Shown here in pieces: positions 11,263 through 16,525 of a stretch of DNA of 64,000 bases. Source of the stretch: Candidatus Mnemosynella biddleae (GTDB lineage: Archaea > Halobacteriota > Archaeoglobi > Mnemosynellales > Mnemosynellaceae); NCBI GenBank assembly GCA_002011165.2, contig MTMI02000001.1, positions 92,174 to 156,173 of the forward strand. Direction: 5' to 3'. Under the pieces are notes generated by a model. The model was not told the origin of the DNA. It ran no database searches and saw only the letters and a list, made by a program, of their open reading frames with translations. Numbering within the stretch: the first letter of the stretch is position 1; each line of letters opens with the position of its first letter. Position numbers and translations under genes: made by a program.

Positions 11263-11946
11263 CTAAAAAAGTAGATCAGAAAGCAGAGATCTCTCCACAT
11301 CACAGAGCTCTGAGAACTCGCACTTTGGGCACTTTTCCTTCTTTGGCGGAAGTTTTCCACTGTAAATCGAGAATATTTTATCTCTTATTCTAATTACATT
11401 TCTTCTATCTGAAAATCTGATTTTTTGTTCTCTGATGATACCATAAGGTGCATAATCCACGTATCCTTTTCTAACTCTTCCAAATCGCTCTTCAGCAAGC
11501 ATTGCATATGCAGTTAACTTTATTCTGTCAGATCTATAGATTCCCTGAGATGGGGGTTTGGAAGTTCTTAAAATAACGGGAATTGGTTCATCAGAAAGAA
11601 CAATTTTATCTAGAATTCCGCTCATTCTGAGTCTTTCTGAGAAGAGTTCGACATCAATTTCATAATTTTCTTCCTTGTAATTTTCAGAACATCGTAGTTT
11701 AACGGCTCTAAAGATCTCGAGATCTTCACTCTTCAGATAAGGATGAGTTTGAAGAATTGTTTTAAAAACATCCGAAATTTCAATCTTATTTGGATACAAA
11801 GAGTATCGAGAAAATACCTCTTTCCAGAAAATTCTTTTGAGAGATTCTTCCTTTTTCTCTTCTAAATTATATCCATTAACCACGAAATATACCATTCTAG
11901 GACATCTTAAATAGAGTGAGATGTCTGAGACTCTTACGAATGACAT
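11263..11946 (-). CDS. Cas4-like / DUF83 (RecB-family) protein, active site apparently degenerate
   Basis: N-terminal RVSDISLYLRCPRMVYF, C-terminal CPKCEFSELCD (Fe-S type cysteines), core GILDKIVLSDEPIPVILRTSKPPSQGIYRSDRIKLTAYAMLAEERFG. Confidence 0.7.
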   Translation of the reverse strand: MSFVRVSDISLYLRCPRMVYFVVNGYNLEEKKEESLKRIFWKEVFSRYSLYPNKIEISDVFKTILQTHPYLKSEDLEIFRAVKLRCSENYKEENYEIDVELFSERLRMSGILDKIVLSDEPIPVILRTSKPPSQGIYRSDRIKLTAYAMLAEERFGRVRKGYVDYAPYGIIREQKIRFSDRRNVIRIRDKIFSIYSGKLPPKKEKCPKCEFSELCDVERSLLSDLLF

Positions 11947-12010: not shown

Positions 12011-12676
12011 ATGCTAAAAATTCTTGCAATTATCCATGCGGAAAATGAAAGGATGGGGTTCATAGAAGATTTTCTCGAAGAGAAAGAAATTGAATATGAA
12101 TATTTGAGATATTACAGAGGAGAGAATATAAAGAGATGGGATTTCACCCATTTAATCATCATGGGAGGGCCTATGGGAGCATACGAAGAGAAAAAATATC
12201 CTTTTCTCGAAGAAGAAAAGAGAGTTATTCTAAGAGCTTTTAAAAGGAATATTCCAATTCTTGGAATTTGTCTTGGAGCACAGTTAATAGCAAGATCTCT
12301 TGGCTCAAGAGTCTACCCGCATATCAGAGAGATTGGATGGTTTAAGATTTGGAAGAATGAGAGAGATGAGATCGCAGAAGAGATTCCAGAAGAATTTTAC
12401 ACTTTCCAGTGGCATAATGACACCTTTGAAATTCCAAATAATGCTAAAATGATTTTCACAGGAGATCCAGTAAAGAATCAAGGATTTAGAATAGGAAATG
12501 CCATTGCACTTCAATTCCATCCAGAAGTCACGAGAGAGATGATAAAGGACTGGATTTCGGATGAAGAGTGTCTCACTGAGGATGAAAAGAAGAGAATTTT
12601 GAAGGACACAGAGAAATATATTAAAGAATCTCAAAAGATCTGCAGAAGATTGATGAATAATTTCTTGAAAATTTGA
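12011..12676 (+). CDS. Class I glutamine amidotransferase-like protein
   Basis: LIIMGGPMGAYEEKKYPFL, ILGICLGAQLIARSLG, ALQFHPEVT. Confidence 0.9.
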   Translation: MLKILAIIHAENERMGFIEDFLEEKEIEYEYLRYYRGENIKRWDFTHLIIMGGPMGAYEEKKYPFLEEEKRVILRAFKRNIPILGICLGAQLIARSLGSRVYPHIREIGWFKIWKNERDEIAEEIPEEFYTFQWHNDTFEIPNNAKMIFTGDPVKNQGFRIGNAIALQFHPEVTREMIKDWISDEECLTEDEKKRILKDTEKYIKESQKICRRLMNNFLKI

Positions 12677-12750
12677 TGGGGCAGCGCAGATTTGAACTGC
12701 GGTCCAGGCCTCCCAAAGGCCCGAGGATAACCAGGCTACCCTACTGCCCC
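12677..12750 (-). tRNA. tRNA-Pro (anticodon UGG)
   Basis: Reverse complement GGGGCAG...GGGCC-TTTGGGA-GGCCT...CGCAGTTCAAATCTGCG-CTGCCCC-A folds as a tRNA with anticodon TGG. Confidence 0.93.
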
Positions 12751-12959
12751 ACGATAAATAGAGATAACAGAGAGAATATTTAAAGGTTTTAGTCCTGCTA
12801 AGATAACTTATTGAAGAGATTCTGTGATGTTTTCTTACCCAATTCCTAATTAAATGAGTTTTTCTATAGAAATCTCTCTTCAAATCCATCTAAATCCAAA
12901 ATCAACCTCTCTCATCAAATCAGGAATCTAATGTTCTTTCATCTCTTAACTCAAATTTT

Positions 12960-13204
12960 CTTTTAATTCAACAGTGTTAATGATGAATTCTGGTTTAAAT
13001 CTCTTCATTTCAATCTTCTATCTCAACAGAATTTCTTCTTTTTATCTTTTCTTCTCTTAAAGAGGAGAAAATTTGAAAAGAAGAAAAATTAGAGAATCAG
13101 GGATATTTATAAATGAACTTCATCTTTAGAGATTCCTGACATCTTATAAAGGAGAGAAGCTCCAGAAAAGATTTTTATTGAGAAAGAAGAGAAAATTAGT
13201 GATG
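12960..13204 (+). promoter_or_regulatory. Probable CRISPR leader
   Basis: AT-rich, non-coding sequence directly upstream of the most regular end of the array. It includes a TATA-like ATATTTATAAATG and ends ...GAGAAAATTAGTGATG before repeat 1. The degenerate repeats are at the opposite end. Confidence 0.6.
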
Positions 13205-14768
13205 GTTGAAATCAGACTAAAATAGGATTGAAATCTTTATCAGGAAGCAGAACTATCGCATCTGCAGAAGCTGTTGAAATCAGACTAAAATAGGATTGAA
13301 ATGAAGTTTATCTGAAATACGAGCTGCAAGCTTTCTGGTTGAAATCAGACTAAAATAGGATTGAAATAGCCCTTCTTGCCCGGTGTGCTTGTGAGTATGT
13401 CTAAAACCTGTTGAAATCAGACTAAAATAGGATTGAAATTGAGTCGTACTTAACAGAATGGTTGGGAATTACGTTGAAATCAGACTAAAATAGGATTGAA
13501 ATGCTTTAAGTAGTCTGCGAGCACGTGCAAGAACATACCGTTGAAATCAGACTAAAATAGGATTGAAATGAGGCACCATCTACGTAGAATGTCTTGTTCG
13601 GAGGAACAGTTGAAATCAGACTAAAATAGGATTGAAATCTTTTTCATGGATCTGGAACTCTACTCTCGAGTTTGGTTGAAATCAGACTAAAATAGGATTG
13701 AAATTCTTGGTCAGATGTCATGGAGCTCAGGAGCAGAAAGGTTGAAATCAGACTAAAATAGGATTGAAATTTTCCATGGGCAATAAGATACGACTACTAC
13801 TATCCATAGTTGAAATCAGACTAAAATAGGATTGAAATCACGTCTACTTTATCACTCCCATCTAAGCCCGTAACTGTTGAAATCAGACTAAAATAGGATT
13901 GAAATGTGATTGCATTCACCATATCTTCCGTGACTGCAACTCGTTGAAATCAGACTAAAATAGGATTGAAATTATTTACCGAGCTGGGGCGATGTAATGG
14001 AGCTAAGGAGTTGAAATCAGACTAAAATAGGATTGAAATAACGGGAGTGGGAGTGCAAGAACTGCGTCTACAACGTGTTGAAATCAGACTAAAATAGGAT
14101 TGAAATAATAGCGGAAGCTCAGAATTCTCTGAAGAGGACATGTTGAAATCAGACTAAAATAGGATTGAAATTGATTCGACGGCTGCGTACATGACAGGAT
14201 TCGTTACGTGAGTTGAAATCAGACTAAAATAGGATTGAAATGATCCTGATATTCCACCGCCCCCTTCTCGACGTGAGTTGAAATCAGACTAAAATAGGAT
14301 TGAAATATTGTATATTCTTTTTTGAATGGTGGAGATACTTTAGTTGAAATCAGACTAAAATAGGATTGAAATATTTCAGGCGTGCTCAAAGCTGTTGGCG
14401 GTTATTTGTTGAAATCAGACTAAAATAGGATTGAAATGTGATCTATAAGCTCTTTAAGAGGTGAGGAAATGAGTTGAAATCAGACTAAAATAGGATTGAA
14501 ATCAACTAAAAGCAGCAATGGATAAACACATGCTTTTGTTGAAATCAGACTAAAATAGGATTGAAATTCTCCAACCCTCCTCATCTTTTTCTCGATCTCG
14601 TGATTGTTGAAATCAGACTAAAATAGGATTGAAATCGTTCCATTCTGATTGCCTTTTCAAGACCCTTTTCGAGTTGAAATCAGACTAAAATAGGATTGAA
14701 AGAACCCTCAGACGTTCCGCAGGTCATTCCTTTCCCTCGTTGAAATCAGACTAAGATAGGATTGAAAG
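13205..14768 (+). CRISPR. CRISPR array: 24 repeats, 23 spacers
   Basis: 30-nt repeat GTTGAAATCAGACTAAAATAGGATTGAAAT. By my count there are 24 copies (first 13205-13234, last 14739-14768), with spacers of 33-42 nt. The last two repeats deviate (T30G in both, plus one internal A>G in the last), marking the distal end. Confidence 0.99.
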
Positions 14769-16215: not shown

Positions 16216-16443
16216 TCAAAAAACTTTGAAACAAATAACTTATGATCTCAATTTCGATGGAGTATGTTTGATTTAATAGAGGCTATTGTGGGCCATTAAA
16301 TGAGATTAATGATGAAAAGTAAAGGTTATACCAAAGTTGAAAAGATAGTTGTGGAACATGAGTTTGCTCCAACTACAATCAAGCTCCTTTCTAATATTTT
16401 TACTAATATTTGAGTGATCATCAATCACTTGTTTACGAAGTAT

Positions 16444-16473
16444 GCTGAATTCAGACTAAGATGGGATTGAAAT
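16444..16473 (+). repeat. Isolated degenerate CRISPR repeat
   Basis: GCTGAATTCAGACTAAGATGGGATTGAAAT against array repeat GTTGAAATCAGACTAAAATAGGATTGAAAT: 26/30 identical. It shares the internal A>G change with the terminal array repeat. Confidence 0.85.
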
Positions 16474-16525
16474 CGAGAGTTGGAAATTGTCACAAAGCAC
16501 TTTTGAGGATATGAGGTTTTATTTT

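What the first reader, a model, noticed from the sequence alone, without database searches (positions are those of the whole stretch)
13705..14009. Two CRISPR spacers encode the same peptide SW[S/G]DVMELR with synonymous differences
Spacer 8 (13705-13740) reads TCT TGG TCA GAT GTC ATG GAG CTC AGG AGC AGA AAG = SWSDVMELRSRK. Spacer 12 (13973-14009) reads TAT TTA CCG AGC TGG GGC GAT GTA ATG GAG CTA AGG A = YLPSWGDVMELR. Over the DVMELR core the two DNAs differ only at two third-codon positions (GTC/GTA, CTC/CTA). The upstream Ser uses different codon families (TCT/AGC). This is what one expects if both spacers were taken from homologous protein-coding sites in two divergent mobile elements. The lineage would then have been attacked repeatedly by one virus or plasmid family at a conserved coding site.
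Basis: partly seen in the sequence, partly recalled or inferred. Interest (0 to 1): 0.75.

Follow-up and report, generated by a model that had tools for sequence, protein, structure and literature searches.

The report
Two spacers from one virus-gene site
The immune memory of an uncultured archaeon holds two stored fragments taken at almost the same spot of one viral structural gene, from two different members of a virus family that is missing from the phage collections searched, and at least three more fragments in the same memory bank point at that family.

Summary
Confirmed and extended. The window holds a 24-repeat, 23-spacer CRISPR array (13205-14767) of an Archaeoglobi-like genome. Spacers 8 and 12 sit exactly at the stated coordinates and encode SWSDVMELRSRK and YLPSWGDVMELR. 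Their DNA similarity was reached in 1 of 600 simulated arrays; among 229 spacers of this genome and its genus-mate only exact duplicates are more alike. No exact protospacer was found. A degenerate-codon scan of GTDB genomes found one ORF that extends both peptides, YLPQWSDVMELRSRG, in a 698-aa tape-measure-like protein on a 14.8-kb virus-like contig (L124). Five array spacers (4, 6, 7, 8, 12) match L124 proteins above all controls; spacers 2 and 3 and one spacer of a second array match more weakly. Mismatches fall 26/17/62 on codon positions 1/2/3. In L124 both sites, and three others, directly follow CCN, a known type I-B PAM; the two Pro codons of P-Y-L-P give two PAMs nine bases apart. Whether spacer 12 primed the uptake of spacer 8, or the overlap is coincidence (1-3% in simulation), stays open.

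The parts
13045..13204 (+). Leader side of the array (newest spacers lie next to it)
   Evidence: 160-bp flank nearly identical to the flank of the C9 array of the same genome; the opposite flanks do not align; the degenerate repeats lie at the other end
13205..14767 (+). CRISPR array, 24 repeats and 23 spacers
13303..13337 (+). Spacer 2: EVYLKYELQAF, weaker match to the same 698-aa gene (EKYLKYEIHAF), CCT before the site in L124
13368..13409 (-). Spacer 3: VLDILTSTPGKKG, weak match to the 268-aa gene hit by spacer 6, same orientation
13440..13472 (+). Spacer 4: ESYLTEWLGI, match to a 157-aa protein of L124 (EAYITEWLGI)
13570..13608 (-). Spacer 6: VPPNKTFYVDGA, best match, 268-aa protein of L124 (VPPNKTFYVDGP), CCA before the site
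13639..13674 (+). Spacer 7: FSWIWNSTLEF, match to the 698-aa protein (FSWIWQSTLDF)
13705..13740 (+). Spacer 8: SWSDVMELRSRK, match to residues of the 698-aa protein (QWSDVMELRSRG), CCG before the site
13973..14009 (+). Spacer 12: YLPSWGDVMELR, match to the 698-aa protein nine bases upstream of the spacer 8 site (YLPQWSDVMELR), CCA before the site

Best explanation
Spacers 8 and 12 were captured in two separate events, 12 first, from two diverged members of one archaeal virus family. Both come from the same stretch of the C-terminal helical part of a tape-measure-like structural protein (FRPYLPxW[S/G]DVMELRSRG). Each capture began just after a CCN PAM on the coding strand; the two PAMs are the Pro codons of P-Y-L-P, which explains the 9-base offset. 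The shared peptide is what selection on the viral protein leaves after third codon positions have drifted. Shown: the two spacers, one gene holding both peptides in one frame, further spacers matching the same contig, and CCN in the relative. Inferred: that the true donors were such viruses, the order of capture (from leader polarity), and that the spacers are used for defence.
For: Single ORF with both extended peptides, including ends (YLP, RSR) that were not in the search pattern. Five spacers score 50-63 against L124, versus at most 41 for 458 shuffled spacers and at most 48 for 20 other contigs of the same MAG. Mismatches by codon position 26/17/62. CC at -3/-2 in 5 of 8 mapped sites of this repeat family, background about 5.5%, P about 2.5e-5. 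Complete I-B cas locus in the genome; CCN is a published I-B PAM (PMC8482600). Leader side fixed by comparison with a second array.
Against: No exact protospacer found in IMG/VR, phages, plasmids, GTDB genomes or Archaeoglobi genomes. L124 sits in a bin whose RNA polymerase is bacterial, so its host is not shown directly. Flanks were read from a relative, not from the donors; three of eight sites lack CCN there.
Confidence: 0.9

Rival explanations
1. Chance similarity of two unrelated spacers.
For: Short sequences; the pair was picked by eye; a score of 15 or more does turn up in 1 of 600 simulated arrays.
Against: One gene extends both peptides, and independent spacers match the same contig.
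Confidence: 0.03
2. Primed adaptation: crRNA of the older spacer 12, imperfectly matched to a diverged relative, recruited the uptake machinery to that virus, and spacer 8 was cut at the next CCN nine bases on. This refines the main explanation rather than replacing it.
For: Two of 7-9 spacers landing within 9 bases on one strand is expected in only 1-3% of random draws. All four spacers in the 698-aa gene are on the coding strand, although CCN sites are fewer there (71 against 182). Six of the eight youngest spacers map to L124 against one of the other 15 (P 0.0017). Priming is known in archaeal I-B systems (PMC7694759).
Against: 1-3% is not compelling after the pair was noticed for its overlap; coding-strand preference is known for I-B without priming (PMC8482600). 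About 8 of 28 mismatches may be too many to prime.
Confidence: 0.25
3. The two spacers come from different repeat units of one protein in one virus, not from two viruses.
For: The C-terminal part of the 698-aa protein is made of similar helical units.
Against: In L124 the W.DVMELR unit occurs once, and that one position accounts for the extra residues of both spacers, YLP on the left and RSR on the right.
Confidence: 0.04

Closest known systems
Type I CRISPR spacer records of recurrent infection (many spacers against one virus family)
   Same: Clustered recent spacers against one family, CCN PAM, coding-strand protospacers
   Different: Here two spacers overlap at homologous codons of diverged viruses, and the link was visible only after translation
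Tail tape-measure proteins of head-tailed viruses (e.g. phrog_1272, phrog_167)
   Same: Residues 60-300 of the L124 698-aa protein match several tape-measure profiles
   Different: The targeted C-terminal part does not; it matches phrog_7334 of unknown function and nothing in the phage records
Fragment L131 in an Archaeoglobaceae MAG (G016)
   Same: Shares the ParB-like protein (53-56% identity), a 118-aa protein (55%) and the long helical protein (20-25%), including PY[LI]P....D...LR.RG at the site
   Different: Much more distant; no spacer matches it above control
Preferential spacer matching of certain viral genes in the ocean (PMC6401485)
   Same: Structural genes among the frequent targets
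   Different: That work counts matches per gene over communities; here it is one codon stretch in one array

Membership tests
CRISPR array | Regular near-identical repeats with unique spacers and a leader | tested here: met
   24 repeats, 23 spacers, conserved leader flank
Type I-B CRISPR-Cas | cas8b, cas7, cas5, cas3, cas6, cas1, cas2, cas4 in the genome | tested here: met
   All present in one locus on contig C7
Type I-B CRISPR-Cas | This array is served by that locus and not by the III-B/Cas4-Csa1 locus on C6 | tested here: inconclusive
   No array was seen beside the I-B locus and no effector genes were found among the ten ORFs tested around the window array; the C6 locus has its own, different repeat
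Protospacer with CCN PAM | CCN directly 5' of the protospacer | tested here: inconclusive
   Met at 5 of 8 homologous sites of a relative; the true protospacers are not available
Head-tailed viruses (Caudoviricetes) | Tape-measure and tail-spike-like proteins | tested here: inconclusive
   Profile matches, partly compositional
Head-tailed viruses (Caudoviricetes) | Terminase, portal and HK97-type capsid protein | tested here: inconclusive
   None recognised in the 14 proteins of L124 that were profiled, but the contig is probably incomplete (no terminal repeats)
Virus of Archaeoglobi | Link to an Archaeoglobi host | tested here: met
   Spacer matches from this genome; the relative L131 lies in an Archaeoglobaceae-type MAG of the same class

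The most novel reading that the evidence does not exclude
The pair is a fossil of priming across virus lineages: an old spacer with several mismatches to a diverged relative of its donor steered the uptake of a new spacer to the next PAM of the same conserved codon stretch, so that immunity tracked a virus family through its protein-constrained sites.
Probability: 0.25. Interest if true: 0.65.

Novelty: new member of a known kind. Interest (0 to 1): 0.5.

Why it matters
It ties a virus family that the reference collections lack to a deep lineage of Archaeoglobi-like archaea by translated spacer matches, where nucleotide searches find nothing. It shows that comparing spacers with each other at the peptide level can reveal target gene, frame and PAM when no protospacer is known. 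It also gives a natural case for asking whether type I priming works across diverged viruses.

Tried and rejected
Exact DNA core of both spacers in IMG/VR: no hit. Degenerate pattern in IMG/VR: six hits, judged coincidental; the closest, L015, shares 18 bases with spacer 8 but lies antisense at the start of a bacterial tailed-phage gene, and L018 is the end of a short ORF of a bacterial phage. Spacer DNA against phages: nothing credible. L124 proteins and profiles in IMG/VR: none, except remote ParB matches. Phages and plasmids by tblastn: only tape-measure or ParB similarity at 20-32% identity. No provirus in this genome or 58 genomes of its class. G016 contigs L132-L134: compositional similarity only. 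Structure of the C-terminal region: all-helical but low confidence (pLDDT 57), so no fold search. One genome search used a mis-ordered pattern and says nothing. Reverse-strand reading LSS[M/I]TS was considered and rejected, because the homologue is in the forward frame.

Full report
Observation. The window carries a CRISPR array at 13205-14767, with 24 repeats and 23 spacers of 33-42 nt. The genome (G000, 1.5 Mb, 11 contigs) belongs to a class of which 59 genomes are held, in a family (f1) with one other held genome, G058. I call it Archaeoglobi-like because the repeat is nearly that of Archaeoglobus (my knowledge); no marker gene was tested. Among all pairs in the array theirs is the best match (score 15, next 10). 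In 600 simulated arrays of the same first-order composition one reached 15 or more. Over 229 spacers of this genome and G058 only two near-exact duplicate pairs exceed it.

Finding the gene. Nucleotide searches failed. I therefore scanned for every spelling of W-x-D-V-M-E-[L/F]-[R/S]. IMG/VR gave six loci and the GTDB genome set 88. One of these, L098 (JAGGSE010000090.1, 'MAG: bacterium isolate AUK014'), reads KYAFNARFRPYLPQWSDVMELRSRGMISDK. It contains the left end of spacer 12 (YLP) and the right end of spacer 8 (RSR), neither of which was in the pattern. The ORF is 698 aa long. The isolate code suggests the Auka vent field, which I did not verify.

Independent support. I translated all spacers in six frames and compared them with the whole 14.8-kb contig (L124). 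Spacers 6 (VPPNKTFYVDGA / VPPNKTFYVDGP), 12, 7 (FSWIWNSTLEF / FSWIWQSTLDF), 8 and 4 (ESYLTEWLGI / EAYITEWLGI) score 63, 58, 57, 53 and 50; the maximum of 458 shuffled spacers is 41. Twenty other contigs of the same MAG give best scores of 37-48, scattered and partly low-complexity. Spacers 2 (43) and 3 (38), spacer 3 of the C9 array (41) and spacer 8 of the C6 array (48) are weaker. Spacer 2 gains from lying in the same 698-aa gene with a CCN flank, spacer 3 from lying in the gene of spacer 6 in the same orientation, C9_3 from a CCN flank. C6_8 is only suggestive, since unrelated contigs also reach 48. Over nine mapped spacers the mismatches to L124 fall 26, 17 and 62 on codon positions 1, 2 and 3, the mark of coding homology in the stated frames.

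PAM. In L124 the three bases before the homologous sites are CCT (spacer 2), CCA (6), CCG (8), CCA (12) and CCA (C9_3), but CGG (7), CAA (3) and CGC (4). With CC at about 5.5% per strand, 5 of 8 has P near 2.5e-5; restricted to the five strong spacers it is 3 of 5, P 0.0016. CCN is a published I-B PAM (PMC8482600) and the genome has a complete I-B cas locus. The sites of 12 and 8 start after the two prolines of P-Y-L-P, hence the 9-base offset.

Order and frequency. The left flank is nearly identical to that of the C9 array and is the leader, so spacer 8 is younger than 12. Six of the eight youngest spacers (2, 3, 4, 6, 7, 8) map to L124 against one of the other fifteen (P 0.0017), though two of the six are weak ones. 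Random draws of 7-9 spacers from CCN sites of a 15-30 kb genome put two within 9 bases on one strand in 1-3% of trials: unusual, but no proof of a hotspot or of priming.

What the target is. Residues 60-300 match tape-measure profiles and residues 439-684 match phrog_7334 of unknown function. The contig also carries a ParB-like protein, a beta-helix protein resembling tail spikes and many small proteins without matches. No terminase, portal or capsid gene was recognised and there are no terminal repeats. The bin's RNA polymerase is bacterial, and L124 differs from the bin's other long contigs in G+C (0.47 against 0.35-0.43), so the contig is probably misbinned. A distant relative, L131, with the same ParB / 118-aa / helical-protein set lies in a MAG of the same class as the window and conserves PY[LI]P....D...LR.RG at the targeted site. 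No close relative was found in the phage, plasmid or IMG/VR collections.

Conclusion. Two spacers record one codon stretch of one viral structural gene, taken from two relatives whose DNA differs at 8 of 28 bases there. The kind of event is ordinary CRISPR memory; the virus family appears undescribed in the collections searched.

Noticed in passing
G000:C6:44378-54580 (L145): A second, much larger CRISPR array of 135 repeats (37 nt, GAAACAGAGAAGAACTCCTAAAAATGGAGATTGAAAG) beside Cmr (III-B), cas1, cas2, cas4 and csa1 genes; spacers 58/61 and 59/62 are near-exact duplicates, pointing to a segment duplication.
   Followed up: partly
G000:C7 (L143:7998-17403): Complete type I-B cas locus (cas6-cas8b-cas7-cas5-cas3 and cas4-cas1-cas2); no array was seen in the 1.5 kb searched beside it.
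   Followed up: partly
window 16439-16478: A single repeat-like copy (GCTGAATTCAGACTAAGATGGGATTGAAA) about 1.7 kb beyond the array, possibly a relic of a longer array.
   Followed up: no
window 11263-11946 (-): A Cas4-like nuclease gene 1.3 kb before the leader; no other cas gene was found among the ten nearby ORFs tested.
   Followed up: partly
window 12675-12751 (-): tRNA-Pro (TGG) gene just outside the leader side of the array.
   Followed up: no
L124 (G059:C13, 14.8 kb): Virus-like contig matched by archaeal spacers but binned in a MAG with bacterial RNA polymerase; probably a misbinned contig.
   Followed up: partly
G016 contigs C5, C23, C287 (L134, L132, L133): Long tape-measure-like ORFs (916-1589 aa) in an Archaeoglobi-class MAG, perhaps fragments of further viruses.
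   Followed up: no
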